From: a virus
DNA: 64,000 bases
Direction: 5' to 3' (one strand)
Virus record (IMG/VR): IMGVR_UViG_3300014325_000012
Coordinates: 39,453-103,452 of that record
Position 1 is the stretch's first letter, and every line of letters starts with the position of its first letter. The position numbers were made by a program, and so were the translations under genes. A model generated the notes under the pieces. The model saw only the letters and a list, made by a program, of their open reading frames with translations. It ran no database searches and was not told the DNA's origin. This document shows, piece after piece, positions 1-58,557 of this stretch.

Positions 1-1223
1 AAGAAGCCATAAGATCTTTAGAGTACTCCAAACACTTTGAATTAGTTTTGGATGATTGTTATAATACTGTTTTTGACAAGGGCTACGCTCGGGAAGTAGA
101 AAATAGATCACATAACTGTGATTTAATCTTAGCCACTCATGATGAGACACTATATAAGCTTAGGTATAACCCTAAGCTTATAGGTCCATCTATTGACACT
201 ATAGAGGCTTGTAGATTCAAAAATACTACTTATGATAGATTAGAACATACAGGCATGATGCCAAAACAATTCTATAATGGATATCCCCATCCTACATCTG
301 AAGATTATCCGCTATTCATTAAGCCGGTTAATGGTCAAGGGACAAGAGGAAACTATTGTGTCGTTAATAAAGGAGATATGCTGCCTAAATATATAGATGA
401 GTTCTTAATCACTGAATTTCTACCTGGAGTGGAGTACACGGCTGATTGTTTTACAGACAGGCATGGAAAACTACAATTTAAAGCGGTTAGAGAAAGAGCT
501 AAGATAACTAATGGAGTAGCTCATCATACCAAGCTAGCAAATAATGGCTGGAAATTAGACGAAGACCTCAGAACAATTTCTAAGATACTTAATATGAGGG
601 GTGCATGGTTTGCCCAATTTAAAATAGATAAAAATGGTAAGCATAAGCTTATGGAGTGTGCTACTAGGTTTGCTGGTAGTTCTGGATTACATAGGTATAA
701 CAATGTGAACTTAGTGGAATTATCCTTATGGGATAAGCTTGAAAAGGATCAAATTATTTATCCCCAAAAGTTTTGTACAGAGGTAATAAAAACGCCTGGA
801 AAACTAGAGATAAAGTATGTGAACAACCCATTCCCAAAAACTATTTATGTTGACTTGGATGACACCCTGATATTCGACGGACAAATAGATGAGCAACAGG
901 GTAGGAAAGTTGGTGGGCGCTTAAATTTAAGTCTTTGGTCTAAACTATGGAGAAAGAAGATAGAAGGATTCCGTATTATACTTCTTACTAAAAACAATAA
1001 CCCATATAAAACTTTATTGGAAGTAGCTGGCAAGTCCTATAGCCTAGTAATGTCTGTACTGGACGAAATTATCTCAGTAGGACTAGACGAATCCAAAGAC
1101 AGCTATATATGGAACCAGTGTATATTTATAGATGATTCCCATAACCAAAGATTGGGTGTATTAACTATGGAAGATTGTGATAATATTGTTCTATCCCCTA
1201 GGGATGCGGAGGATGTACTATGA
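1..1223 (+). CDS. ATP-grasp ligase fused to HAD-like domain (5' truncated)
   Basis: The frame is open at the left edge (in phase from base 3), so the N-terminus lies outside; 406 residues are visible. The first two thirds look like an ATP-grasp enzyme, which joins a carboxylate to an amine through an acylphosphate: LFIKPVNGQGTRG (about nt 311-350) is the ATP-binding Lys/Gly loop, EFLPGVEYTADCF follows, and LMECATRFAG sits where metal ligands are expected. The last third opens with IYVDLDDTLIF (about nt 843-875), the DxDxT motif of HAD phosphohydrolases, with FIDDS near nt 1130 as the distal acidic motif. The pair would activate and dephosphorylate a small substrate. It overlaps the next gene by 4 bases (ATGA) and belongs to the sugar-modification cluster. 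The family call is good; the substrate is unknown. Confidence 0.8.
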   Translation, partial: EAIRSLEYSKHFELVLDDCYNTVFDKGYAREVENRSHNCDLILATHDETLYKLRYNPKLIGPSIDTIEACRFKNTTYDRLEHTGMMPKQFYNGYPHPTSEDYPLFIKPVNGQGTRGNYCVVNKGDMLPKYIDEFLITEFLPGVEYTADCFTDRHGKLQFKAVRERAKITNGVAHHTKLANNGWKLDEDLRTISKILNMRGAWFAQFKIDKNGKHKLMECATRFAGSSGLHRYNNVNLVELSLWDKLEKDQIIYPQKFCTEVIKTPGKLEIKYVNNPFPKTIYVDLDDTLIFDGQIDEQQGRKVGGRLNLSLWSKLWRKKIEGFRIILLTKNNNPYKTLLEVAGKSYSLVMSVLDEIISVGLDESKDSYIWNQCIFIDDSHNQRLGVLTMEDCDNIVLSPRDAEDVL

Positions 1224-1969
1224 ACAATCCCTTAGTTTCTATATTAAGCTTAAGCTATAACCATGAGAAGTATTTGCCTGACTTCTTTGAGTCTATTCTA
1301 AATCAAACCTATAGACCTATTGAATTAGTACTTTGTAATGATTGTAGTCCGGATAATTCAGAACCTATAATTCAGAATTATCTACCAAAACTAACAAAGA
1401 ACAATATTTCCTATATCTACCTAGTGCCAGGAGGTAATCAAGGATTCTTTAAAAGTTTCGATATGGTGAGAGAAGCAACATCAGGTGAATATATTGCTAC
1501 ACTGGAAACAGATGACTATTACCTACCTACGAAAATTGAAGAGTCTGTAAAGTTTTTACAAAATAACCCACAGTTTGGGGCTATGGCAACTGATATTAAC
1601 AGTTTATGGGAAGATGGAAGATATGAGGAGTATAGCTGGAGGAGGATGGGAATAAACCAAAACGGTAATGAAATACCCTATCCGTACCTTCTCCAAGATA
1701 ATAGAATTTATACCTGTACAGCAGTTTATAAGACGAGTATATTTAACAAGTCACCATTAGATTCAGAATGGGAAAAGAGTGGATACAAGATGGGGGACTA
1801 TCCAAGAGCCTTATGGATAGGAAGAAGACATAAAATAGGTTATTTGGATAAAAATCTCTCTACATATAGAATACATGGGAAGTCAGCTTCTCATAATCCT
1901 GAGACTTATGCTGCTTTTGTAGCGAGCTATTTACAGATTAAAGAAGATGCTAAAGCGGGGAAAATATGA
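1220..1969 (+). CDS. Family 2 glycosyltransferase
   Basis: 249 residues, complete. The N-terminus VSILSLSYNHEKYL, the NDCSPDNS segment (about residues 40-47) and ETDDYYLP (about 96-103) are the nucleotide-sugar binding and DxD-type metal-binding parts of a GT-A, family 2 glycosyltransferase. It would transfer a sugar from a nucleotide donor to a glycan, lipid or protein acceptor. It starts inside the end of the ATP-grasp/HAD gene and its end overlaps the methyltransferase gene by 4 bases, so the cluster is translationally coupled. No membrane segment is seen; it is probably cytoplasmic. The acceptor (phage virion, phage DNA or host surface) cannot be told. Confidence 0.85.
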   Translation: MNNPLVSILSLSYNHEKYLPDFFESILNQTYRPIELVLCNDCSPDNSEPIIQNYLPKLTKNNISYIYLVPGGNQGFFKSFDMVREATSGEYIATLETDDYYLPTKIEESVKFLQNNPQFGAMATDINSLWEDGRYEEYSWRRMGINQNGNEIPYPYLLQDNRIYTCTAVYKTSIFNKSPLDSEWEKSGYKMGDYPRALWIGRRHKIGYLDKNLSTYRIHGKSASHNPETYAAFVASYLQIKEDAKAGKI

Positions 1970-2688
1970 GCTTATATTTAGAACTACTTAAAAAGATACT
2001 GGTAAACTCTATTTACGAGGATGTTAGTATTCATCCAGGACATGATGGTAGTACCCATTATAACCATTTAAGAGCTACTGGAGATGACTGGCCTAGACAG
2101 GCCCATACTATGATAGGAAGAAAGAGGTTAGATAACCTTCACTACTGTCTAAGAACTATAACTAGCGATATGATCCCTGGACACATAATAGAAACTGGGG
2201 TATTTAGGGGAGGCACTTGTATATTTGTAGCAGGATTCCTAAAGCAGTTGGAATCAGACAGACTTGTTTATGTAGCAGACTCATTTGCCGGATTCCCGGG
2301 TGGTAGAGAAGAGGATAAGGGGGATCAGTGCCTGACTCAAAATCACTATTTCTCTGTATCCAGAAAACAAGTAGAGGATAATTTTAAAAAATATGACTTA
2401 CTCACTCCTAATGTGGTATTTTTAGAGGGTTGGTTTAGTGATACACTCCCAACTCTTAATGGACCATTTGCAATTTTAAGACTAGATGGAGATATGTATA
2501 GCTCAACAATGGACGCCTTAGTTAACTTATATCCTAAGTTAAATAGCGGAGGATTCTGTATAGTAGACGATTATAAGTCTCATCCAAGTTGCAAAAGGGC
2601 AGTGGATGAATATAGATCTGCAAATGGAATAACCGGACCAATAATAGAAATAGATAATCAAGGAATATTTTGGAGGGAAACTAGATGA
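1966..2688 (+). CDS. TylF-like O-methyltransferase
   Basis: 240 residues. It resembles the TylF/macrocin O-methyltransferase family of SAM-dependent enzymes that methylate sugar hydroxyls: IGRKRLDNLHYCL, then IETGVFRGGTCIF (the SAM-binding glycine loop, about residues 70-82), VYVADSFAGFPGG, LRLDGDMYSSTMDAL and FCIVDDYKSH (metal and catalytic acidic residues, about 165-205). Start ATG overlaps the upstream stop. Its place between two glycosyltransferase-like genes supports a role in decorating a glycan. Confidence 0.85.
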   Translation: MSLYLELLKKILVNSIYEDVSIHPGHDGSTHYNHLRATGDDWPRQAHTMIGRKRLDNLHYCLRTITSDMIPGHIIETGVFRGGTCIFVAGFLKQLESDRLVYVADSFAGFPGGREEDKGDQCLTQNHYFSVSRKQVEDNFKKYDLLTPNVVFLEGWFSDTLPTLNGPFAILRLDGDMYSSTMDALVNLYPKLNSGGFCIVDDYKSHPSCKRAVDEYRSANGITGPIIEIDNQGIFWRETR

Positions 2689-3365
2689 TACATGTGTATG
2701 CTTTATGTTACTGGATTTTACCTTATGCACAAACTACTATAGATAATATGTTAGAGAATGCTTCAGAGCCGTTAAATATAACCGTGGTGGAGGGAAGAAG
2801 CCATAATTCTTCCCATTTTCTGGATTGGGCTAAAGATTATTTGAATCAAGGAAAAATTCAAAGATTTATTAGGGCTGATCAAAACTGTAAAGGTTCCGGA
2901 TTACTCTATGCCTTCGATAATTACCCGCCAGATAATAGTGAAGACTTCTGCATATTCACTGATTTGGATTTACTTGTACCTAAAGGATGTGATTGGATAG
3001 GTCAGACAAGACAAGCTATGAAAGTAGGCGCTGTTTCTGGATTTCAGTTAAGCTCTGAAAACTACGTGAGCCCCAATTGGGGGTGGCATGAAAATGAACA
3101 ATCCTTTGGCAATTGGCATATGGGAATAAAAATAAATGCTGTAAAGTCCTACCCAAGACAATTAAGTTTTCAAGACCATTTAATGATAGGGCATGCCATG
3201 AACTATGGTCCCAGAATCCAAATAAAGACTAGAATATATCATCAGGGATGGGATGCCTGGAAAACTGACCCTAAGTATTGGGAAGCAAAACTAGCTAATA
3301 TGGACTGGCAGAGTGGTAGTACAATTCCAACTACTTACCAAACCTTTACCAAGGAGAATATTTAA
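2685..3365 (+). CDS. Glycosyltransferase-like protein (GT-A fold)
   Basis: 226 residues. The N-terminal beta-alpha start (MIHVYALCYWILPYAQTTID), the ITVVEGRSHNSS segment and CIFTDLDLLVPKG (about residues 88-100, a DxD-like metal-binding motif) suggest a GT-A glycosyltransferase. The C-terminal half is rich in aromatic residues and His (GWHENEQSFGNWHMGI, YHQGWDAW), as in acceptor-binding regions. It overlaps its upstream neighbour by 4 bases and the HNH gene downstream by 1. Less certain than the family 2 member because the N-terminal motif is atypical. Confidence 0.6.
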   Translation: MIHVYALCYWILPYAQTTIDNMLENASEPLNITVVEGRSHNSSHFLDWAKDYLNQGKIQRFIRADQNCKGSGLLYAFDNYPPDNSEDFCIFTDLDLLVPKGCDWIGQTRQAMKVGAVSGFQLSSENYVSPNWGWHENEQSFGNWHMGIKINAVKSYPRQLSFQDHLMIGHAMNYGPRIQIKTRIYHQGWDAWKTDPKYWEAKLANMDWQSGSTIPTTYQTFTKENI

Positions 3366-3865
3366 TGGTATTCTACGGACGAAAATACTATAGAAGCCCA
3401 TTGGTAGGTCTTGTCTGTGATAATTGTGGAAAACCTTTTGAATTAAAGCTGTTTCACTATAATATAAAACTTAGAAGGGGCAATAAGAAGTTTTATTGTT
3501 GCTTTAAGTGTGGTAGACAAGCCCCTAAGAAAGAAGAAACTACAGAGATTATGTTCTGGTCAAAGGTAGATAAAACCCCAGGCCTAGGTCCTGATGGTAG
3601 TTGTTGGGAATGGAGAGGGGCTATTCAAGGAAGGGGATATGGTACACTCTATATAATAGAGACAAGGAAGACTAGCCAGGCCCATAGATATAGTTATGAG
3701 TTGCATAAAGGACCTATTAGTACTGATCTTAACATACTACATTCTTGTGATAACAGGAAATGCGTTAATCCAAATCACTTATCAGAAGGTACACAAAAAG
3801 ATAATGTACATGATATGATGAGTAAAAATAGAGGGTACTGGCAAAAAGGAATAAACTTACTATGA
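3365..3865 (+). CDS. HNH homing-type endonuclease
   Basis: 166 residues. An N-terminal zinc-knuckle (CDNCGKPF and CCFKCGRQ) is followed by WEWRGAIQGRGYGTL, the SQAHRYSYELHKG segment and LHSCDNRKCVNPNHLSEGT, which together form the HNH_3 nuclease core (about residues 75-150). Such free-standing endonucleases cut DNA at specific sites and spread between phages. It sits between sugar-modification genes to which it is functionally unrelated, with 1-base and 4-base overlaps, so it has been fitted neatly into the operon. Confidence 0.88.
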   Translation: MVFYGRKYYRSPLVGLVCDNCGKPFELKLFHYNIKLRRGNKKFYCCFKCGRQAPKKEETTEIMFWSKVDKTPGLGPDGSCWEWRGAIQGRGYGTLYIIETRKTSQAHRYSYELHKGPISTDLNILHSCDNRKCVNPNHLSEGTQKDNVHDMMSKNRGYWQKGINLL

Positions 3866-4398
3866 AAATACATCTTGGATGTAATAATGACATTAGAGAA
3901 GGATTTATAAACATCGACTTGGTAGATAAAGTAGATCCTAACTATATACAATGGGACCTTAGAAAAGGGTTGCCAGACTCAATCAGAGACGTAGAACTTG
4001 TATATAGCTCACACGTATTGGAGCATCTGATGTATGATGACTGCTTAACTCTACTAACGGACTGCTTTAATAGGATGAGAAGGGGTGGAATAATTAGGAC
4101 ATCTATGCCTGATTTTATAAAAACATTTAGGGCTTATATAGATAATGACTTAGATTGGTTTAATGAGCTATGGTATGTTAAACCACAAAATATAACTGGT
4201 TTCGTTAACGCTTCCATATATCAATACTCAGATGGAGTAAATGAACATAAGTGTATATGGAGTGCTAGGGACTTTATTAAGACTTTAGAAGGTGTGGGTT
4301 TCACTAATTGTAGGGAGGTAGAATTTGATGAGAATTATGATCCAGTAGACCCAATTAGGAGGAAGTATAGTTTCTACGTACAGGCGGAAAAGCCCTAA
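3862..4398 (+). CDS. Class I SAM-dependent methyltransferase
   Basis: 178 residues. IHLGCNNDIREGFINIDL (residues 3-20) is the SAM-binding motif I and acidic loop; LVYSSHVLEHL (about 46-56) is the methyltransferase_11 type motif; RMRRGGIIRTSMPD is the motif before the final strands. Target unknown, but the context suggests a sugar or nucleotide-sugar. Its 3' end runs 44 bases into the 3' end of the convergent DegT gene. Confidence 0.82.
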   Translation: MKIHLGCNNDIREGFINIDLVDKVDPNYIQWDLRKGLPDSIRDVELVYSSHVLEHLMYDDCLTLLTDCFNRMRRGGIIRTSMPDFIKTFRAYIDNDLDWFNELWYVKPQNITGFVNASIYQYSDGVNEHKCIWSARDFIKTLEGVGFTNCREVEFDENYDPVDPIRRKYSFYVQAEKP

Positions 4399-5419
4399 TA
4401 GTTCGACATATATACTTAACGTCCTCCTCAGTAATAGTCAGACCAGTAGGTAATTGAAATATCCTCTTACTATAGTGGTCTGTTTTAGGTAGCTCCACCT
4501 TCTTCTTGTGTGGAGCTACCTTGTGTATTGGGAAAAAATAAGTTCTAGCAAATATTTTATGTTGATGTAAGTAATGCATAAGGTGGTCTCTTAATAAGGA
4601 GTCAACCTCACAAACTATATAAGAGTAGTTACTTCTCTCCACATTCGGAGTTTTAAGACTAACCCAGCCAGGTAAATACTTCCTATACCATTGATATACT
4701 GAAAAATAATGATCAAGAATTGGCTCTCTATGCTCAATTTGGGTAAATATAGAGGCGGCGGATATCTCATTCATTTTTGTATTAGTTCCAGAAGTAACTA
4801 ACTTACCTTCTATACCCTTATGTTCGTGGTCATAACCAAAATTTCTATGCCACCTAAGTCTTCTAGCTATAGTTTCATCATTAGTAACTATAACACCACC
4901 TTCAAAACCTCCAAACTCTTTAGTTGGATGAAAAGAAAATACAGCCATATCCCCCTCTAAGCCTTCGTAACTCAGGAAAGCATGGGCAGAGTCTCTAATA
5001 ATAGTTAAGTGTTCACTATTGAACTTGGGAACAACTCCACCAAACAAATCTACTGGCATAACTGCCACAGTACCCTTGGAGAAAAAGTTTTCATTGAAGG
5101 ACATAAGGAAATTGTCATCTATGTCACAATAAATAGGGGTGTTTTGGGTGTTTTCTATTGCATTAATACTACCTACAAAAGTAAAGGAAGGAACTACTAC
5201 CCCACCTTTGAAGAAACCTAAGCACATCTCCAACCCCATAGTAGCATTAGATATAGCTATTGCGTGTTCAACATTAATGACCTTTTGTACTTCCTCTTCC
5301 AACTTTTCAACATAAGGTCCGTTATTGGAAAATCTATGGGAATCCAATATTTCACCCACTCTATGGAGAAAAAGGTCTTTGTTGTATATGGTAGGTTTTC
5401 CAACATAAAATTCTTTCAT
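4355..5419 (-). CDS. DegT/DnrJ/EryC1/StrS-family aminotransferase
   Basis: 354 residues, minus strand. A PLP-dependent sugar aminotransferase: IAISNATMGLEMCLGFF (about residues 54-70), VVVPSFTFVGSINAIE (75-90), IYCDIDD, IRDSAHAF with Asp143 that contacts the PLP ring, and FSFHPTKEFGGFEGG with the Schiff-base Lys167. Length is near the family's usual 370. These enzymes make amino-sugars such as the nucleotide-linked sugars of O-antigen or capsule. It is the only member of the cluster on the minus strand; it is divergent from the small gene at 5503, so nt 5420-5502 must hold promoters for both directions. Confidence 0.9.
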   Translation of the reverse strand: MKEFYVGKPTIYNKDLFLHRVGEILDSHRFSNNGPYVEKLEEEVQKVINVEHAIAISNATMGLEMCLGFFKGGVVVPSFTFVGSINAIENTQNTPIYCDIDDNFLMSFNENFFSKGTVAVMPVDLFGGVVPKFNSEHLTIIRDSAHAFLSYEGLEGDMAVFSFHPTKEFGGFEGGVIVTNDETIARRLRWHRNFGYDHEHKGIEGKLVTSGTNTKMNEISAASIFTQIEHREPILDHYFSVYQWYRKYLPGWVSLKTPNVERSNYSYIVCEVDSLLRDHLMHYLHQHKIFARTYFFPIHKVAPHKKKVELPKTDHYSKRIFQLPTGLTITEEDVKYICRTIRAFPPVRRNYTSS

Positions 5420-31857: not shown

Positions 31858-32157
31858 AATGCTTGCATCTCCGTTTTTGCTATATTTCAAGCATAGCGCA
31901 TGTTGAAATTTGTTTTCGCCTATAAGGATATGCGGAAATTTGTAAACTTTTGTAAATTTGCAGTCAAGATAGAATAATAATACACGTGTACGCACACGCA
32001 CGCGCGTATACACCCCTATCCTGCAATCCCGCACGTCCCAATCCCGTACCCCCGCCCCCAGGGGCTGTACGTATAAGATAAGAGCCAAAATTGTCCATTA
32101 CGCCATTATTATAGTGTTAGGCGTTAGCCATTAAGTGGTTATTAGGGGACAAGCGAG

Positions 32158-32176
32158 TAATGGGGAATCCCCATTA
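32158..32176. repeat. Inverted repeat
   Basis: TAATGGGG-AAT-CCCCATTA, a perfect 8-bp stem with 3-base loop in the noncoding control region. Confidence 0.7.
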
Positions 32177-32621
32177 TAAGCATAACCCAGTCCCCTGTAT
32201 TATAATTAAACTAGTTATTATATAAATAAGAGGGAAAACAAATACAGTATTACTAATTAAGCTATCCGCCAGAGTATATATACCTTCTACACCTAATGTA
32301 TTACCTGGGTAGTAACATATGAAAGGCCATGAGAGATACCCACTAATTACAATACAGTATTATTTACTAATTATCATATAGTAGCTGAGTAAACATCGGA
32401 AGAACCTTCCTGGATTACAGTATTATACAGCTAGTGGCATACGGCGCCGTAAATTTGTGTAATATTACCAGTGTTAAAGTATAAAGAAGAGGGACGGTGT
32501 ACAACAATTGGATTTATTACACCAGCCAGGAGCAATCCTGGTACTTTAGTTTGTTTATTACAGTAATATTATGGTAAATATGGGGATTTTTTGCATTATT
32601 ATACCCCTCCGTGATACCTAT

Positions 32622-32653
32622 CCAAATATAACTAACGCCAAATATAACTAACG
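32622..32653. repeat. Tandem 16-bp direct repeat
   Basis: Two exact, adjoining copies of CCAAATATAACTAACG (32622-32637 and 32638-32653). Iteron-like spacing of one and a half helical turns; protein binding is possible. Confidence 0.85.
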
Positions 32654-32680
32654 CTATTAGAATGGTAGTACCCAATCATT

Positions 32681-32706
32681 ACATACACACACACACATAT
32701 ATATAC
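32681..32706. repeat. CA/TA microsatellite
   Basis: Alternating purine-pyrimidine run (ACAT, seven AC units, then ATATATAT). Easily melted; no further function seen. Confidence 0.7.
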
Positions 32707-33407
32707 TACTGTATATGAATAAGGATGTATGCGGGACCTCTCCTTAGCCTGGTATGTAGGACTATGCGGGTCACCTTCCACGTCCACTATTTGTAGCTAT
32801 GTATTACTGTAGCTAAGTATTAATTGTTTTGGCTGCCTTGTACTAAATACTTGGTTTTCCGGTATTACTTTAAGTACTAATAATTCCATGTGCCGAAGGC
32901 ACCCCATTAAGTTATTATGTTAAGTTATGTAAAGAGGTGTATTAAATATGCACGTAAGGGCAACTCCCCCGCCTTTCAGCTACCGTATTAGTTTAAATAC
33001 TTAAGATTATCACGTATTTTGTGTTCTGTCAATAGTTTTATTAAGTTATATGTATATATGTAAATTCCCTGTAACATTATCATGTTACTGTCCCTAAGCT
33101 ATACGCTTGGGACTATATAGGACATGTGTATATAACAAATTTATGAAATTTTGTAAACTTTTGTTTTTGCTTGCTGGACGGCAAATTTGGGGTTAATTAG
33201 CAAAATTTTATTTTTGTCGCAAAATTTGCATGGGATAATGGGATTGGAGTAAATAGGCTTTTATATGCTTATATACTCCTGTAACAACAACCAGCATGGG
33301 GAAGTACTACATATGCCCCATCCTACGGCGTGTAAGCCATATATGCGAAATACGTTATGAAGTAGCATATAATATGGCGGGGCGACAACCCCTAATGAGG
33401 CACCGTT

Positions 33408-33466
33408 TAGTGTATAGGTAATAGTGATTACCTACTGATGAGGGCACAGTTATGCCCGAAACACTA
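33408..33466 (+). ncRNA. Hammerhead ribozyme, type III
   Basis: Every conserved element is present. Helix III: TAGTGT (33408-33413) with ACACTA (33461-33466). Cleavage triplet GTA, predicted cut after A33414. Helix I: TAGGTAAT (33415-33422) with ATTACCTA (33427-33434), loop AGTG. Core CTGATGA (33435-33441). Helix II: GGGC (33442-33445) with GCCC (33454-33457), loop ACAGTTAT. Core GAAA (33458-33461). The open end is helix III, hence type III. It is the first element of the early-type region and ends 12 bases before the start at 33479, so self-cleavage would trim the leader of that mRNA. Confidence 0.93.
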
Positions 33467-33478
33467 TACAGGTGCATT

Positions 33479-33670
33479 ATGTCCATACTTCAAGACCAAG
33501 TGAGACATTGCCATAAGCTTTTACAAGACTGCTTGCAAGAGCTTAAAGAGCATAATAGTAACTTAGTGGAAGGTGTAGAGGAGGAATTACAACAACCAGT
33601 AAAATGTCCTCATGTTATTAGAAAGGGTATATGTATATGGTGTAAGGAGGTATGTAATGGAGAAGCTTAG
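33479..33670 (+). CDS. Small zinc-binding-like protein, 63 aa
   Basis: A frame from ATG 33452 starts inside the ribozyme; ATG 33479 (MSILQDQVRHCHKLLQDCLQ) with AGGTG just upstream is preferred. A helical N-terminus is followed by CPHVIRKGICIWCKEVC, a C-x2-H/C-x2-C knuckle (about residues 40-57). Possible nucleic-acid or protein binder. First gene downstream of the hammerhead. Confidence 0.65.
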   Translation: MSILQDQVRHCHKLLQDCLQELKEHNSNLVEGVEEELQQPVKCPHVIRKGICIWCKEVCNGEA

Positions 33671-33820
33671 ACTAACATCAGCACAGATGAGAGCCGCTAT
33701 ATGTGAAAAGTATGGTACTGACCCTTCTGATGTTTACTTTCGATAGAGTGTAAGTTTAACCATGAAAAGTGGTATATGTGGGATGGTACGGAATTATATG
33801 TTAAGAAGGAGGGTACATAA
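33657..33820 (+). pseudogene. Small gene interrupted by a frameshift (about 54 aa if joined)
   Basis: ATG 33657 with AAGGAGG upstream reads MEKLRLTSAQMRAAICEKYG to TAG 33744. Another frame, open from before this stop to TAA 33818-33820, reads IECKFNHEKWYMWDGTELYV and ends in TAATGA with the next gene's ATG, as real genes here do, but has no start of its own. Joining needs a -1 (or +2) step near TACTTTCGATAG (33735-33746). No classical slippery heptamer is present. Either a recent indel or an unusual recoding site. Confidence 0.55.
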
Positions 33821-34110
33821 TGAGTGTTATGCATGTTGCTGAGTTAATTGACTTAATACCCCAGTGTCATAAAATGACTAAGATGACAGGATATCATGGA
33901 GACTTTAAGCGGGAGGATGTTATTAGAGACAACATGGAGTCTGAGTTAGCAGTATGTTTAGCGCGAATGATTGTTATGACTCTCCCAGACAAACAGTTAA
34001 ACTTAACTCCTGTACATAAGAAGCCTGGGTATTACAATGTTATTGTGGTTCCTGTTAAGCAACGAGTTTACCGTAAACCACATTGGGTAAAGGTAGTTTG
34101 CGAGAATTAA
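33820..34110 (+). CDS. Hypothetical protein between two hammerheads, 96 aa
   Basis: ATG overlaps the previous stop. Helical N-terminal half (VAELIDLIPQCHKMTKMTGY), beta-rich basic C-terminal half (YNVIVVPVKQRVYRKPHWVK). Stop codon directly abuts the second hammerhead ribozyme. Not recognised. Confidence 0.7.
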   Translation: MSVMHVAELIDLIPQCHKMTKMTGYHGDFKREDVIRDNMESELAVCLARMIVMTLPDKQLNLTPVHKKPGYYNVIVVPVKQRVYRKPHWVKVVCEN

Positions 34111-34174
34111 TCCCGAAACAGGGTAGATATTACCCTGTATAACCCCACGTGGTTCGTGGGTTACTGATGAGGGA
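34111..34174 (+). ncRNA. Hammerhead ribozyme, type II, overlapping the next gene's ribosome binding site
   Basis: Circularly permuted hammerhead with helix II open. Helix II: TCCC (34111-34114) with GGGA (34171-34174). Core GAAA (34115-34118). Helix III: ACAGGGTA (34118-34125) with TACCCTGT (34131-34138), loop GATAT. Cleavage triplet GTA, predicted cut after A34139. Helix I: TAACCC/GGGTTA plus ACG/CGT with one bulged C (34140-34163). Core CTGATGA (34164-34170). All pairs are Watson-Crick. It starts right after the stop of the gene at 33820, and its 3' helix II strand is part of GAGGGA, the only Shine-Dalgarno for GTG 34180. Confidence 0.92.
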
Positions 34175-34179
34175 AGCCA

Positions 34180-34434
34180 GTGAATTTACAAATAGGTAAG
34201 TTATGCTCACTTTGTCTTAAGGGTATAGGTAGATACCAGCGTCATGGTTATACCGTAACCAGTCCTATTGGGGTTGTGCATTTAGAAGGTTGTGGGTTTA
34301 TAGCATGTGATTTTTGTCATGTGCAAGTACCTGATGCCCCCACATTACAACGGGTGAAAGATGCTAAAAATGCACAAATAGCCCAATACTTATGTAAGTG
34401 TTTACAGTGCGATGTAATTAGGAGGACTAGGTAA
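34180..34434 (+). CDS. Zinc-knuckle protein, 84 aa
   Basis: GTG start 6 bases after GAGGGA of the hammerhead. Three Cys pairs: LCSLCLKGIG (residues 8-17), FIACDFCHVQV (about 43-53) and YLCKCLQCDV (about 70-79) suggest zinc ribbons. His residues also fit. Overlaps the next ATG by one base. Its translation should depend on the ribozyme's folding state. Confidence 0.7.
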   Translation: MNLQIGKLCSLCLKGIGRYQRHGYTVTSPIGVVHLEGCGFIACDFCHVQVPDAPTLQRVKDAKNAQIAQYLCKCLQCDVIRRTR

Positions 34435-34532
34435 TGGATGAGTACTTAAAGGAGAACTTAGTTAAGATATGCTTGACTACTCTTATATCCACAGCAATGG
34501 TAGTAACAATTGTTAAACTCATGGGGCTATAA
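34434..34532 (+). CDS. Small membrane protein, 32 aa
   Basis: TAATG junction with the upstream gene. Short charged start (MDEYLKENLVK) and one hydrophobic helix (ICLTTLISTAMVVTIVKLMG). Unknown role. Confidence 0.55.
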   Translation: MDEYLKENLVKICLTTLISTAMVVTIVKLMGL

Positions 34533-34535
34533 ACT

Positions 34536-34766
34536 ATGCTAAAACAAGTACATATATCAGAAATATTTGAATCTCAGTATTTACCCTTTAACCCAGTACC
34601 AGTACCCCTAGCTATATTACAGAAGTATGGAGCTAAGGCTCCTGTAGGTAATAGAGGTTATTGGAGTAACGGAGTATTAAAGTGGAGTGAATGGTTTGCG
34701 GGAGCTATTCACAGACGATATGCGGTATGTCCTGTATGTCCTGAGGTTATGGGAAGTACATTGTAA
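34536..34766 (+). CDS. Hypothetical protein, 76 aa
   Basis: ATG 4 bases after the previous stop. Pro/Val-rich middle (FNPVPVPLAILQKYGAKAPV), Trp-rich segment (YWSNGVLKWSEWFAGAI) and CPVCPEV near the end. Stop codon TAA forms the base of the hairpin element that follows. Not recognised. Confidence 0.65.
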   Translation: MLKQVHISEIFESQYLPFNPVPVPLAILQKYGAKAPVGNRGYWSNGVLKWSEWFAGAIHRRYAVCPVCPEVMGSTL

Positions 34767-34814
34767 TTTGGTACATGCCTGTTAGGTGACAGATAACAGG
34801 CAATTACCCAGTTA
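34764..34814 (+). promoter_or_regulatory. Intercistronic hairpin element, copy A
   Basis: Outer stem TAATT/AGTTA (one G-T pair), single mismatch, GGTA/TACC, 3x3 internal loop CAT/AAT, inner stem GCCTGTTA/TAACAGGC with loop GGTGACAGA. It begins at the stop codon of the gene ending 34766. The outer 3' strand can instead pair in CCAGTTA/TAACTGG (34808-34824), so two folds exclude each other. Confidence 0.75.
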
Positions 34815-34845
34815 TAGTTAACTGGTATACATGAGGTAATATACT

Positions 34846-35049
34846 ATGGTAACTGTAGATGAAGTAATTGCGGAATACCTTACATTCGATGATGAAACAC
34901 CTGATGATGTATGGGCGAATTGGGCTAATAAGAAATTAGCTCTTACGGAAGAGGAACAGGATAGTGTGGATAAGGTAGTGCAAGCGGATATAGATACACA
35001 ATTAGAGGACTTATCTCAGGAAACTAAAGCTATTATACTAGCTCAGTAA
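34846..35049 (+). CDS. Acidic hypothetical protein, 67 aa
   Basis: GAGGTAAT upstream of ATG. Strongly acidic and helical (VDEVIAEYLTFDDETPDDVW, LTEEEQDSVDKVVQADIDTQ). Such acidic small proteins may mimic DNA, but nothing specific is visible. Its stop codon starts hairpin copy B. Confidence 0.65.
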   Translation: MVTVDEVIAEYLTFDDETPDDVWANWANKKLALTEEEQDSVDKVVQADIDTQLEDLSQETKAIILAQ

Positions 35050-35102
35050 TTAGGTACATACTCCAGTGCTATTAACTTAGTGCTGGAGTAATTACCCAAT
35101 TA
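35047..35102 (+). promoter_or_regulatory. Intercistronic hairpin element, copy B
   Basis: Outer stem TAATT/AATTA, A-C mismatch, GGTA/TACC, internal loop CAT/AAT, inner stem ACTCCAG/CTGGAGT with further pairing above. Starts at the TAA of the upstream gene; AAGGAGGG of the next gene follows directly. Confidence 0.75.
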
Positions 35103-35116
35103 AGGAGGGTGTAAGC

Positions 35117-35371
35117 ATGATGACAGTGGAAGATGCTCTTATAACTAAGGGTATGACAGTTAAACTAAGTGAGAAATGCCATACAGCAATAGACTACTTC
35201 AAAGTAGCTCCTGAAGTGATTACAGACTGTACAACTAAGCAGAGATATGTGTTACTTGTTCCCCGTAAATCCATGTTACCTAAAGATGTTATTACTTTGG
35301 TAGTGGATAAGTTAAAGGAAAGAGGATTTACAGTGCAGGGAGCTGGACAACTCATACGTGTTTTTCTCTAG
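35117..35371 (+). CDS. Hypothetical protein, 84 aa
   Basis: AAGGAGGG upstream; two ATG codons in a row. Basic, mixed alpha/beta protein (ITKGMTVKLSEKCHTAID, RYVLLVPRKSMLPKDVITLV, ERGFTVQGAGQLIRVFL). Stop TAG opens hairpin copy C. Not recognised. Confidence 0.65.
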   Translation: MMTVEDALITKGMTVKLSEKCHTAIDYFKVAPEVITDCTTKQRYVLLVPRKSMLPKDVITLVVDKLKERGFTVQGAGQLIRVFL

Positions 35372-35418
35372 TTAGGTAAACAGGGTAAGATTAACGTCTT
35401 ACCTTGACTACCCAACTA
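35369..35418 (+). promoter_or_regulatory. Intercistronic hairpin element, copy C
   Basis: Outer stem TAGTT/AACTA, A-C mismatch, GGTA/TACC, small internal loop AA/AC, inner stem CAGGGTAAGA/TCTTACCTTG (one G-T pair). Compared with copies A and B, base changes on one side of each stem are matched on the other. Begins at the TAG stop. Confidence 0.75.
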
Positions 35419-35431
35419 CGGAGGTAATACA

Positions 35432-35965
35432 ATGGGTGTAAGTAAGTTAGATATAAACAGGTGTTTGTGGCTGTTAGATACAGCATTATTCATGCCAGGA
35501 GAGTTAATGGCTGGGTATGCGGAGAAGACATTTAATATGGGATTACCTTCCTATAAGCTGCCCAGTATGCCATGGGATAAGAATAGAGCTTTAGGTAATT
35601 TAGCTATTACGGAAATTACATTTAATCCTATGGATGTAACTCCCGGTACTCAAGGATATAGTGAGTTACGGGAAGATAAAATAGCTATATACAATGGGGC
35701 ACAATTACCCCATAAAACCCTATTCCATGAAATAGCCCACTGTCTATGTCATGTACCAGAGCTACCACAATATGTAAAAGAGTTTGAGGCTGAGTGCGTA
35801 GCTTTATTACTGGTAGACCATTTAGAGCTACCAGGAGCTAAGTTTTGTAGAGGAGCAATACAGGAAAGCGAACGTGGTATTAAGTTACTTAGCTTGGATA
35901 ATCATGTAGTTACACCATACGTGCTTATTAAATCCGCACAAACTATACTGGAGGCAGGACTATGA
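35432..35965 (+). CDS. ImmA/IrrE-like zinc metallopeptidase, 177 aa
   Basis: HEIAH at residues 99-103 is the zincin motif; EFEAECVALLLVDHL (about 117-131) supplies the downstream Glu, as in ImmA/IrrE and in the metallopeptidase domains of antirestriction ArdC-type proteins. Length fits a single domain. Such proteases cleave repressors or defence proteins. AGGAGG-type site upstream, hairpin copy C in the leader. Which subgroup is not certain. Confidence 0.75.
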   Translation: MGVSKLDINRCLWLLDTALFMPGELMAGYAEKTFNMGLPSYKLPSMPWDKNRALGNLAITEITFNPMDVTPGTQGYSELREDKIAIYNGAQLPHKTLFHEIAHCLCHVPELPQYVKEFEAECVALLLVDHLELPGAKFCRGAIQESERGIKLLSLDNHVVTPYVLIKSAQTILEAGL

Positions 35966-36420
35966 TAAATACAACATTTTATGTTGAGAGAATACATATG
36001 TTAGGTGGAGGACTGTATAGATATAGGGTATGGGAAGAACTTACGGAAACACAATCCTGGGCAACATCCCATGTATCCCAGTGTACTATTAACAATAAAC
36101 GAGTGGGGGAATTAACAAGTAGACGTATACCATGGTTAAATGATACAGACTTCCCACCATGTACTGATAGACGATTTAACATGGTCCATGCATGGTATAA
36201 GGGATTAGAAAAGCTTACAGCTATACTTATTAGGCTGGCTTATCCTGAAACCAGAAGTATAGACCCTGACCAAATAGTGACCATGATGGTAGAGTCTCCT
36301 GTAAATAGACCGCATGAAGTGAGAAATGTTTACTTTACTGGTAAACATAGAGAGTACGCGGTTTATAAAGTGGAGTATGGTCCTGGTCCAGTAACTAAAA
36401 CATTATGGAGTTCCCAGTAA
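35962..36420 (+). CDS. Hypothetical protein, 152 aa
   Basis: 4-base overlap with the metallopeptidase gene. Trp-rich protein (YRVWEELTETQSWATSHVSQ, HAWYKGLEKLTAILIRLAYP). Co-translated with the peptidase, so it may be its partner. No family recognised. Its stop lies at hairpin copy D. Confidence 0.65.
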   Translation: MINTTFYVERIHMLGGGLYRYRVWEELTETQSWATSHVSQCTINNKRVGELTSRRIPWLNDTDFPPCTDRRFNMVHAWYKGLEKLTAILIRLAYPETRSIDPDQIVTMMVESPVNRPHEVRNVYFTGKHREYAVYKVEYGPGPVTKTLWSSQ

Positions 36421-36474
36421 TATACTTGGTACATACCTCTTTACTAATACTAAAGAGGTAATTACCCGGCATAT
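36420..36474 (+). promoter_or_regulatory. Intercistronic hairpin element, copy D
   Basis: GGTA/TACC with 3x3 internal loop CAT/AAT and perfect inner stem ACCTCTTTA/TAAAGAGGT (36435-36443, 36451-36459), loop CTAATAC. The outer stem is weaker (ATAT/ATAT plus CT/GG with mismatches). The last base of the stop codon is in the outer stem. Confidence 0.7.
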
Positions 36475-36496
36475 GGGTGTTAGAGGAGATAGGACA

Positions 36497-36910
36497 ATGG
36501 AAGAAAGAGAGATACGAGACCTAATACAGGAATTACAGGAAGCCACTGAGGCTTACTTAAAAGCCAAGGATAGGTACAATACAATTACTTTCCTCGTAAC
36601 CAGTAAATTAGGAAGTAAGGGAATTAATGTAGCAGTACCACCAATTACACATACACAAGAGTCACAAATACAAAGTGCTAAGACTGCTGGTAAGGAAATT
36701 ACAGTACGAGGACAAAAGTATAAGTCTTTATATGAGGCTGTAAATAAACTTACATCCATTAGTGGTATATCCTACGGTACTGCTAAGAAGAGATTAGATG
36801 CAGGACATAGTCCCGAAGCTTCCTTACTTGTACCTGTAGGTATGGGTGGAGATATAGAAGCTATGTATGAGGCTATGGATGCTACTGGACAGTTTGAAGA
36901 GGAGGGATAA
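36497..36910 (+). CDS. Coiled-coil protein with NUMOD/IENR-like HTH, 137 aa
   Basis: A frame from 36473 exists, but ATG 36497 with AGAGGAGAT upstream fits better (MEEREIRDLIQELQEATEAY). N-terminal coiled coil; residues about 70-115 (ITVRGQKYKSLYEAVNKL, GISYGTAKKRLDAGHSPEAS) resemble the small DNA-binding modules found at the ends of homing endonucleases. The minus-strand HNH protein at 47231 ends with a similar module. Probably a DNA-binding regulator. Confidence 0.65.
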   Translation: MEEREIRDLIQELQEATEAYLKAKDRYNTITFLVTSKLGSKGINVAVPPITHTQESQIQSAKTAGKEITVRGQKYKSLYEAVNKLTSISGISYGTAKKRLDAGHSPEASLLVPVGMGGDIEAMYEAMDATGQFEEEG

Positions 36911-43607: not shown

Positions 43608-43687
43608 TATTACGGCGGGACTTGCTACCACAGTATGAGGGCGAGGTTAGTCCGTAAGTGGTGAGATGGAAAGCATCACCAGCCTAT

Positions 43688-43716
43688 AGCCTGGGTATTA
43701 ATACCCAGGCTATATT
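43688..43716 (+). terminator. Terminator hairpin
   Basis: AGCCTGGGTA/TACCCAGGCT with loop TTAA, then ATATTTGTATATTTTT. A further small hairpin GGTGA/TCACC lies upstream (about 43653-43671). Confidence 0.75.
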
Positions 43717-43751
43717 TGTATATTTTTGTAACCTCAAGATACTGGTATATT

Positions 43752-47896: not shown

Positions 47897-48892
47897 ATGA
47901 GTGAGTATGCAGTTAAAGTTTGTAAATTATTAAACATTCAACCAGTACCTAATTCTGACAACCTCTCAATGGCGAAGATTGAAGGCTATAATGTTATTTG
48001 GAACCATAATGAAAACCCATATGGTATGGATAGGCCTTATCGTGAGCAAGATGAGATTATATTAGTTTTAGAGGATTCCGTAGTCCCGGAAAATGACCCA
48101 AGATGGGCTTATTTGGGAGAGCATAGAAGAATTAAGGCTAAAAGATTACGCGGTGTGTTTAGTATGGCAGTAATCACTCCATCTAAACCAGAATTCTCAT
48201 TGGGTCAAGATGTTAGAGAACAGCTAGGCATTACAAGATACACTCCCCCTGAGCCTGTGACTACTGGAGGGGACAATGAGAAAGATCCTGGGTTCCTTCC
48301 CCATTACACTGATATAGCTTCCCTTAGAAGATATGAGGATATATTTGTACCCGGAGAACAAGTTATAGTAACTGAAAAGCTTGATGGCGCTAATGGTAGA
48401 TGGTTATATAAAGATGGAAGATTATGGGTAGGTTCCCATTCCTGTATTAAATCACCTACTAGTAATACTGTATGGTGGAGAGTAGCTAAGCAGTTAGACT
48501 TAGAGAAGAAATTAGAAGCTTTTGAGAATATAGCTATATATGGAGAAGTATATGGTTATGTACAAAGCTTGAGGTATGGCGCAAAGCCTGGTGAGGTTAT
48601 GTTAGCTGTATTTGATGCTATGGATGTAAGAACACGTACATATTTTGACCATGATAAGCTAGAACAGCTATGTAAAGTATTAGAGCTACCAATGGTCCCC
48701 GTTATATACAATGGTCCCTTTATTGCTGATGTAGTGAAAGGTATAGCAGAAGGTAAAACTACCATTAAAGGTGGAGATAACATCCGGGAAGGTGTAGTAA
48801 TTAAACCAGTAAACGAAAGGTTTGATGAAAGACTAGGCGGTAGAGTAATACTTAAATACGTAAGTGAACAGTACTTACTTAAGAAGAAATAG
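47897..48892 (+). CDS. RNA ligase, DRB0094 (Rnl5-like) family, 331 aa
   Basis: Nucleotidyltransferase with motif I EKLDGANGRW (Lys161 is the AMP acceptor), IYGEVYGYV (motif III), REGVVIKP (motif IV) and VILKYVS (motif V). The N-terminal 110 residues (VCKLLNIQPVPNSDNLSMAK, RAYREQDEI-like) match the OB-type extension of the Deinococcus DRB0094 ligase family, which seals nicked RNA. Role: repair of RNA, for example tRNA broken by host defence. Its presence near ribozymes and a TROVE-like protein is noteworthy. Confidence 0.88.
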   Translation: MSEYAVKVCKLLNIQPVPNSDNLSMAKIEGYNVIWNHNENPYGMDRPYREQDEIILVLEDSVVPENDPRWAYLGEHRRIKAKRLRGVFSMAVITPSKPEFSLGQDVREQLGITRYTPPEPVTTGGDNEKDPGFLPHYTDIASLRRYEDIFVPGEQVIVTEKLDGANGRWLYKDGRLWVGSHSCIKSPTSNTVWWRVAKQLDLEKKLEAFENIAIYGEVYGYVQSLRYGAKPGEVMLAVFDAMDVRTRTYFDHDKLEQLCKVLELPMVPVIYNGPFIADVVKGIAEGKTTIKGGDNIREGVVIKPVNERFDERLGGRVILKYVSEQYLLKKK

Positions 48893-57030: not shown

Positions 57031-58557
57031 ATGGGAATTTGGGATAAGAATGTATTTGCAGCTAAATTGCAGGAGCAAAGTAACATAACAACCACATTAA
57101 ATTCTGCTACTACCCATAAATCCACACTGTCTAAGGTATTGGATTTGTTTTCCCAGGGGGCAGCTCTGAGAAATAGAAATGAAGCTGATGTTATTAAAAT
57201 GTTTGAGTTGGCTTTCATGGAAAATCCTGACCTAGCCCTTAAGTGTCTCTTTTATATAAGAGATATTAGAGGTGGGCAAGGAGAGCGCAAAACATTTAGA
57301 ACTATTATTAAGCATTTGGGTAACACTTATCCGGACAGATTTGAGCACCTAATTTCCCTGGTTCCGGAATATGGAAGATGGGATGATTTGTTTAGTTTGA
57401 TGGGAACTAAGCTAGAACACAAAATGCTGGAAGTTATAAGCAACCAGCTTAAGTTAGACTTGGAAGGATCTAAGCCTACCCTACTGGGTAAGTGGCTACC
57501 TTCCCTAAATACTTCTAGCGCAGCTACTAGAGAACTAGCTAAAAAGCTTATTAAGTTCTTCAAGGTAAAAGAGTCAGATTACCGTAAAGCTTGTTCCCAC
57601 CTGAGATTTGGGATAGATATACCCGAACGTAAAATGTCTAGTGGAAAATGGGACAAGATTGAGTATAGTAAAGTTCCATCAAGAGCTTCTTTGCTGTATA
57701 GAAAAGCCTTTTATAAACATGATGAGGAAAGGTATAAAAAATTCCTGGAAGATGTTAAGAACGGTAAGCAAAAAATCAAAGCTGCCGCATTATTTCCCTA
57801 TGACATTATTAGGGAATACATAGGCAAATATGGTTTGGATGATACTTTAGAAGCCCAATGGAAAGCATTGCCTAACTTCTTGGAAAAAGAAGAATCCGCC
57901 CTTGTTTTATGCGATGTTTCCGGTAGTATGATGTGGGGACACAATTCCGGTAATGTTAAGCCTCTACATGTAGCAATCTCCCTTGCTATTTATATCAGTG
58001 AACGAGTAAAGGGACCATTTGCCAATACTTGGATGACTTTTAGTGCTAAGCCCACTATTAAGCATTTAACTGGTAAGACAGTATACGAAAAGGTAACAGA
58101 GCTAAGAAATGACAGGGATTTTGGTTTAAATACCAATATTCAAGCTTGTTTTGACTGTATATTGAACATGGCTAAACAAACCAACTGTTCCCAGGAAGAT
58201 CTTCCTAAGTATCTCCTTATAGTATCCGACATGGAATTTGATAATGCAGATTCCGATCATGCTCCTGGAAGTACTGTTATGGGCAAGCCCCATAATACAA
58301 ACTTTGAAGTAATAAAGAAGAAGTTTGAGAATGCTGGGTATCAGATGCCTACATTAGTTTTTTGGAATGTAGACTCCAAAACTACTCAATCTCCAGTAAC
58401 TAAGAACGAAAAGGGAGTATTTTTAGTGTCTGGTTGTAGTCCTTCCATACTTAAAAATGCATTAAATAGGACAGAACTAATACAGACAGCAGAGGATTTA
58501 ATGCTTGCAGTGATAAATACGGAAAGGTATGCACCTATTGGTGATAGTGCTCAATGA
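57031..58557 (+). CDS. DUF2828/TROVE-like protein with von Willebrand A domain, 508 aa
   Basis: N-terminal helical repeat region with FSQGAALRNRNEADVIKMFE, FYIRDIRGGQGERKTFRTII (about residues 74-93) and LVPEYGRWDDLF (110-121), which are DUF2828 landmarks related to the TROVE/Ro60 ring. A vWA domain follows: LCDVSGSMM (residues 293-301) is the MIDAS DxSxS, NTNIQACFD (about 364-372) gives the Thr, YLLIVSDMEFD (about 387-397) the Asp. Ro60 proteins hold misfolded RNA and Y RNAs on a ring closed by such a vWA domain. A structured leader (E4) precedes it, and an RNA ligase is 8 kb away. RNA binding is inferred. Confidence 0.88.
   Translation: MGIWDKNVFAAKLQEQSNITTTLNSATTHKSTLSKVLDLFSQGAALRNRNEADVIKMFELAFMENPDLALKCLFYIRDIRGGQGERKTFRTIIKHLGNTYPDRFEHLISLVPEYGRWDDLFSLMGTKLEHKMLEVISNQLKLDLEGSKPTLLGKWLPSLNTSSAATRELAKKLIKFFKVKESDYRKACSHLRFGIDIPERKMSSGKWDKIEYSKVPSRASLLYRKAFYKHDEERYKKFLEDVKNGKQKIKAAALFPYDIIREYIGKYGLDDTLEAQWKALPNFLEKEESALVLCDVSGSMMWGHNSGNVKPLHVAISLAIYISERVKGPFANTWMTFSAKPTIKHLTGKTVYEKVTELRNDRDFGLNTNIQACFDCILNMAKQTNCSQEDLPKYLLIVSDMEFDNADSDHAPGSTVMGKPHNTNFEVIKKKFENAGYQMPTLVFWNVDSKTTQSPVTKNEKGVFLVSGCSPSILKNALNRTELIQTAEDLMLAVINTERYAPIGDSAQ

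What the first reader, a model, noticed from the sequence alone, without database searches (positions are those of the whole stretch)
34111..34182. Type II hammerhead whose helix II contains the next gene's Shine-Dalgarno
Circularly permuted hammerhead placed between stop codon (34110) and start codon (34180). The 3' strand of helix II, GGGA, belongs to GAGGGA, the only ribosome binding sequence for the GTG start. Folding for catalysis and ribosome loading exclude each other, so this may be a translation-sensitive self-cleaving switch. Type II hammerheads are the rarest arrangement to describe.
Basis: partly seen in the sequence, partly recalled or inferred. Interest (0 to 1): 0.8.

Follow-up and report, generated by a model that had tools for sequence, protein, structure and literature searches.

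The report
Phage hammerhead ribozyme overlapping ribosome site
Between two small phage genes lies an RNA that very probably cuts itself, of a kind already known from many phages, and it is placed so tightly that part of it doubles as the signal that starts translation of the next gene.

Summary
Window 34111-34179 is a complete type II hammerhead ribozyme in a 103-kb IMG/VR virus record: Rfam Hammerhead_II, 29.8 bits (gathering score 37), E = 2e-5 for the record. All core positions are present, and no shuffled window gave an equal. It fills the gap between a TAA stop (34108-34110) and a GTG start (34180). The only Shine-Dalgarno, GAGGGA (34169-34174), is made of the core's last two bases plus the 3' strand of helix II. 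The claim that type II is rare is wrong: capped IMG/VR scans returned hundreds. Usually the next gene's Shine-Dalgarno lies downstream of the ribozyme (93 of 119 unselected GAGG types); it was embedded in 8. A targeted scan found 36 other phage loci with the embedded layout, in about 29 protein families, so the layout recurs as a minority. Most likely the element cuts the mRNA at the gene boundary; the cut also puts the anti-Shine-Dalgarno strand on the other fragment. A translation-sensing switch is possible but unsupported: folding energies and helix II length show no sign of selection for it.

The parts
33820..34110 (+). upstream ORF, 96 aa, no recognised family; ends with TAA directly against the ribozyme
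   Evidence: SD AAGGAGG at its own start, -10.7 kcal/mol; no PHROG or Pfam match
34111..34114 (+). helix II, 5' strand (UCCC); also the anti-Shine-Dalgarno strand; on the upstream product after cleavage
34115..34118 (+). core GAAA (G12 A13 A14 A15.1)
34118..34138 (+). helix III hairpin, 9 bp, ACAGGGUAGAUAUUACCCUGU; would become the 3' end of the upstream mRNA
34139..34140 (+). expected cleavage site: GUA triplet, cut between A34139 and U34140
   Evidence: position follows from hammerhead core numbering; cleavage itself not tested
34140..34163 (+). helix I hairpin, 9 bp with one bulged C, apical loop UGGUU 34150-34154; would become the 5' end of the downstream mRNA
34164..34170 (+). core CUGAUGA; its last GA starts the Shine-Dalgarno
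34169..34174 (+). Shine-Dalgarno GAGGGA; GGGA (34171-34174) is the 3' strand of helix II
   Evidence: -6.1 kcal/mol; no other SD for this ORF
34175..34179 (+). AGCCA: pseudoknot strand, pairs with loop I UGGUU (U-A, G-C, G-C, U-G, U-A); also the SD-to-start spacer
   Evidence: sequence; family-level compensation of loop I and tail; Perreault 2011
34180..34434 (+). downstream ORF, GTG start, 84 aa with three CxxC motifs (probable zinc-binding protein, inferred)
   Evidence: no family match, no relative in phages or IMG/VR

Best explanation
This is a self-cleaving type II hammerhead ribozyme with a loop I/tail pseudoknot that cuts the phage's polycistronic mRNA at a gene boundary, between A34139 and U34140. 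The upstream mRNA would then end in the helix III hairpin and the downstream mRNA would begin with the helix I hairpin. In this locus the ribozyme has been packed onto the next gene's ribosome binding site. While the uncut RNA is folded, helix II and the pseudoknot cover the Shine-Dalgarno and spacer. Cutting leaves the anti-Shine-Dalgarno strand (UCCC) on the other fragment, held by only four base pairs, so the ribosome can take the site. Shown: the anatomy, the statistics, and the recurrence of the layout in other phages. Inferred: cleavage in the cell, mRNA processing, and the effect on translation. I think constitutive cleavage more likely than sensing.
For: Full core and three helices, Rfam RF02276 E = 2e-5 per record. 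Pseudoknot of 5 bp in the window; across 113 distinct loop/tail combinations from 119 phage hammerheads, loop I and tail are complementary beyond 2000 permutations (mean 3.07 against 2.42 +/- 0.07). Same gene-boundary layout in relatives: of 320 distinct elements 278 have an upstream stop within 60 nt, most often directly abutting helix II. The SD-embedded layout recurs in 36 other loci, about 29 downstream-protein clusters, including one four-member family in which ribozyme and layout are kept while the protein changes. Pseudoknotted type II hammerheads cleave fast in vitro, phage-derived hammerheads cleave in E. coli, and a halovirus transcript 5' end maps to a hammerhead site 13 nt before a start codon (PMC3088659). 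Engineered twister ribozymes with the SD held in a stem raise expression 5- to about 100-fold when active (PMC5052635).
Against: Score below Rfam's gathering threshold. No cleavage data. No relative of this phage found at this locus, so conservation of this very copy is untested. Secondary-structure calculations do not show the SD being freed by cleavage in the window: after cutting, GAUGAGG can pair weakly with CUUUGUC at 34210-34216 inside the downstream gene, although the calculation ignores the pseudoknot, translation and co-transcriptional order.
Confidence: 0.7

Rival explanations
1. Translation-sensitive switch: ribosomes loading at 34180, or ribosomes terminating at 34110, block folding and so prevent cleavage, which couples mRNA cutting to translation.
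For: SD and spacer are both ribozyme parts (and the pseudoknot). The upstream stop abuts helix II, so a terminating ribosome would cover UCCC and GAAA; this abutment is the commonest arrangement in the family.
Against: No consistent accessibility change on cutting. Helix II length is not different in embedded ribozymes. SD usually lies outside the ribozyme in this family (93 of 119). Compact spacing is expected in any dense phage genome.
Confidence: 0.18
2. Ordinary processing ribozyme in which the SD overlap is incidental: genome compaction placed GAGG, which a G-rich helix II after CUGAUGA provides at no cost, at the right distance from a start codon. (This shares the cleavage part with the best explanation and differs only in denying a translational effect.)
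For: Every hammerhead with G at 10.2 contains GAGG; 8 of 119 unselected GAGG ribozymes have it in SD position. No sign of selection on helix II in embedded loci.
Against: GAGGGA is the only SD of this gene, so the overlap has a consequence even if it arose by chance.
Confidence: 0.45
3. Chance or decayed hammerhead-like sequence without activity.
For: Score is under the Rfam gathering threshold. No relatives at this locus to show conservation.
Against: No core position is missing; 0 of 400 shuffled strands match it; placement between genes is exactly that of the family. In cellular genomes 17 sequence-only pattern matches gave no folded hammerhead, so the filter discriminates.
Confidence: 0.05
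4. The hairpins are a transcription terminator or protein-binding operator rather than a ribozyme.
For: Helix III and helix I are strong GC-rich inverted repeats.
Against: No U-run follows, and no terminator-like site is found. The hammerhead core is unexplained by this reading.
Confidence: 0.02

Closest known systems
Rfam RF02276 Hammerhead_II (type II hammerhead ribozymes of bacteria and phages, Perreault et al. 2011)
   Same: circular permutation, core, loop I/tail pseudoknot, phage intergenic placement
   Different: helix II 4 bp instead of the 2 bp of the model, GUA instead of GUC, score below gathering; SD lies inside helix II and the start follows the pseudoknot strand directly
HHphage of haloviruses HF1/HF2 (PMC3088659)
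   Same: hammerhead shortly upstream (13 nt) of a phage start codon; a transcript 5' end maps to the cleavage site
   Different: archaeal virus with core insertions; no SD in a ribozyme helix is described in the passages read
Artificial SD-masking ribozyme switches (hammerhead, Wieland and Hartig 2008 as cited in PMC5052635; twister, PMC5052635)
   Same: SD/anti-SD pair built into a ribozyme stem so that cleavage detaches the anti-SD
   Different: engineered and ligand-controlled; here natural, helix II, no ligand known
IMG/VR loci L187, L225, L226, L266 (CTGATGA GGATAGC ATG)
   Same: natural type II hammerhead with GAGG in core/helix II and start 7 nt after CUGAUGA; stop just upstream
   Different: unrelated 88-aa protein; start 7 instead of 9 nt after the core

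Membership tests
Rfam Hammerhead_II (type II hammerhead ribozyme) | catalytic core CUGAUGA ... GAAA ... UH in the order of the type II permutation | tested here: met
Rfam Hammerhead_II (type II hammerhead ribozyme) | helices I and III closed by loops, helix II open | tested here: met
   helix III 9 bp, helix I 9 bp with a bulge, helix II 4 bp
Rfam Hammerhead_II (type II hammerhead ribozyme) | loop I / 3' tail pseudoknot of 4 or more bp (majority feature) | tested here: met
   UGGUU:AGCCA, 5 bp; family-level compensation; about 4% chance for a random 5-nt loop
Rfam Hammerhead_II (type II hammerhead ribozyme) | score at or above the gathering threshold of 37 bits (a curators' reporting cut-off, not a structural feature) | tested here: not met
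   29.8 bits, E = 2e-5 per record; the model consensus is GC-rich with a 2-bp helix II
Rfam Hammerhead_II (type II hammerhead ribozyme) | self-cleavage activity | not testable with these tools
   needs an in vitro transcription assay
SD-masking ribozyme switch (engineered class) | SD paired in a ribozyme stem with its partner on the other cleavage product | tested here: met
   UCCC 34111-34114 lies 5' of the cut, GGGA 34171-34174 lies 3' of it
SD-masking ribozyme switch (engineered class) | cleavage raises SD accessibility and expression | tested here: inconclusive
   secondary-structure energies show no gain in the window and no consistent gain over 37 loci; expression not testable
Regulated (ligand- or translation-sensing) ribozyme | cleavage responds to a signal | not testable with these tools
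   Rfam reports no other RNA at the site

The most novel reading that the evidence does not exclude
Natural ribozymes in phages use the Shine-Dalgarno of the next gene as a helix II strand, so that self-cleavage unmasks translation and ribosomes in turn block cleavage: a natural counterpart of engineered SD-masking ribozyme switches, arisen repeatedly in some 30 unrelated phage genes.
Probability: 0.18. Interest if true: 0.75.

Novelty: new member of a known kind. Interest (0 to 1): 0.42.

Why it matters
The role of bacterial and phage hammerheads is an open question. The layout described here (stop codon, ribozyme, then SD inside or just after the ribozyme) gives a direct prediction: cleavage-dead changes should alter translation of the downstream gene most in loci where the SD is inside helix II. 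The window and about 36 other loci are a ready-made natural test set, with the far larger group of SD-outside ribozymes as controls.

Tried and rejected
Close relatives of this ribozyme by exact pattern in IMG/VR: none. Relatives of the downstream or upstream protein in IMG/VR or named phages: none; DNA relatives of 32000-36500 in named phages: none. So locus-level conservation could not be tested. A second hammerhead or other Rfam RNA near the site: none. Terminator: none. SD-embedded hammerheads in cellular genomes: 17 pattern matches, none folds as a hammerhead. A register-broken control for the embedded fraction (31.6 of 119 against 8 observed) was judged unfair because it removes each gene's own SD, and is not used as evidence. 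SD opening energies before and after cleavage gave no consistent direction. In the 37 embedded loci as a group the pseudoknot is not enriched (7 of 37 with 4 or more bp, mean 2.68 against 2.55 permuted), so the window, which has both, is not typical of them.

Full report
Observation. The window is part of a 103,452-base IMG/VR virus record. At 34111-34182 the Rfam model of type II hammerheads (RF02276) aligns from its first to its last position with 29.8 bits, E = 4.2e-4 for a 501-base query against all Rfam and E = 2.0e-5 for the family over the whole record, where it is the only match. It is below the gathering score of 37 and so absent from the default scan. The sequence holds every core base: UCCC-GAAA-[helix III]-UA^-[helix I]-CUGAUGA-GGGA. 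A motif search that asks for core and helices finds this one place in the window and nothing as good in 400 shuffled strands; the fold has z = -3.0.

The 3' tail AGCCA (34175-34179) is complementary to the five-base loop of helix I (UGGUU, 34150-34154). This is the pseudoknot that Perreault et al. 2011 (PMC3088659) found in most type II hammerheads and showed to be needed for fast cleavage. I tested its reality in the family: 119 structurally confirmed hammerheads, taken from a scan that set no condition on the tail beyond the first helix II bases, gave 113 distinct loop/tail combinations. Loop I and tail are complementary far beyond permuted pairings (mean longest helix 3.07 against 2.42 +/- 0.07, none of 2000 permutations as high). 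In the window AGCCA is also the whole spacer between GAGGGA and GTG. So the ribosome binding site from 34169 to the base before the start codon consists of ribozyme parts.

The gene start. The ORF at 34180 is preceded by an in-frame TGA at 34168, has one SD (GAGGGA, -6.1 kcal/mol), and its other in-frame starts have essentially no SD and would lose the first of three CxxC motifs. The upstream ORF ends with TAA directly against helix II. Neither protein has a known family or a relative in the collections searched.

How unusual. Type II hammerheads are not rare. They sit between genes: of 320 distinct elements, 278 have the stop of an upstream open frame within 60 nt, and the commonest position is immediately before helix II (95 elements; 31 more overlap it by one base). 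The downstream gene normally has its own SD after the ribozyme (93 of 119 unselected GAGG-type ribozymes); 8 of 119 have the SD inside core and helix II as here. A targeted scan with a structural filter gave 36 further loci whose start codon lies 4-13 nt after CUGAUGA with GAGG or similar inside; by protein similarity they and the window make 30 clusters. In one four-member cluster the ribozyme is nearly identical and the start stays directly behind the tail while the protein differs, including by an indel. As a control, the same kind of pattern in 257 Gb of cellular genomes gave 17 matches, none of which folds as a hammerhead.

Mechanism. In a type II hammerhead helix III lies wholly on the upstream product and helix I wholly on the downstream one; only helix II joins them. 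Cleavage therefore leaves the anti-SD strand UCCC on the upstream fragment, attached by four base pairs (-4.4 kcal/mol as an isolated duplex), and the SD on the downstream fragment. Engineered twister and hammerhead switches are built on this principle, and in the twister case an active ribozyme raised expression 5- to about 100-fold over an inactive one (PMC5052635). In nature, phage hammerheads cut polycistronic RNA in vitro and in E. coli, and a halovirus transcript begins at its hammerhead site close upstream of a start codon (PMC3088659). I therefore favour constitutive cutting at the gene boundary, with unmasking of the SD as a likely consequence.

What speaks against a switch. Predicted opening energy of the SD does not fall after cleavage in the window (5.55 uncut, 5.63 cut) and shows no consistent direction over 37 loci (median difference 0.09 kcal/mol); in the window the freed strand can pair weakly with CUUUGUC at 34210-34216. 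Helix II is not longer in SD-embedded ribozymes. These calculations ignore the pseudoknot, co-transcriptional order and ribosomes, so they leave the switch unproven rather than excluded.

Verdict. A genuine new member of the known type II hammerhead family in a minority but recurrent layout. I found no description of natural hammerheads with the SD in helix II in five literature searches, but the library holds only open-licence papers, so this is weak evidence of novelty.

Noticed in passing
47897-48892 (+): RNA ligase (Pfam PF09414, E 1e-28) with an N-terminal PHA02142 OB-fold domain, in the same phage. Hammerhead cleavage leaves 5'-OH and cyclic phosphate ends, which such ligases do not usually seal directly (own knowledge).
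   Followed up: partly
57031-58557 (+): DUF2828/DUF7788 protein, present in at least 682 named phage records at under 60% identity.
   Followed up: partly
48-5419: Cluster of genes resembling glycosyltransferases, methyltransferases and an aminotransferase, plus an HNH-like ORF, read by eye; unusual load of sugar-modifying genes in a phage.
   Followed up: no
IMG/VR loci L015, L163, L290, L368: Single phage contigs carrying from 6 to more than 10 type II hammerheads, apparently one per gene boundary.
   Followed up: no
many IMG/VR loci, e.g. L004, L005, L017: Type II hammerheads whose start codon lies 9-10 nt after CUGAUGA with no SD other than GAUGAG of the core itself: another layout in which initiation must overlap the ribozyme.
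   Followed up: partly
43664-43717: Palindromic stretch with a weak Acido-Lenti-1 match on both strands (E about 0.25), probably chance.
   Followed up: no
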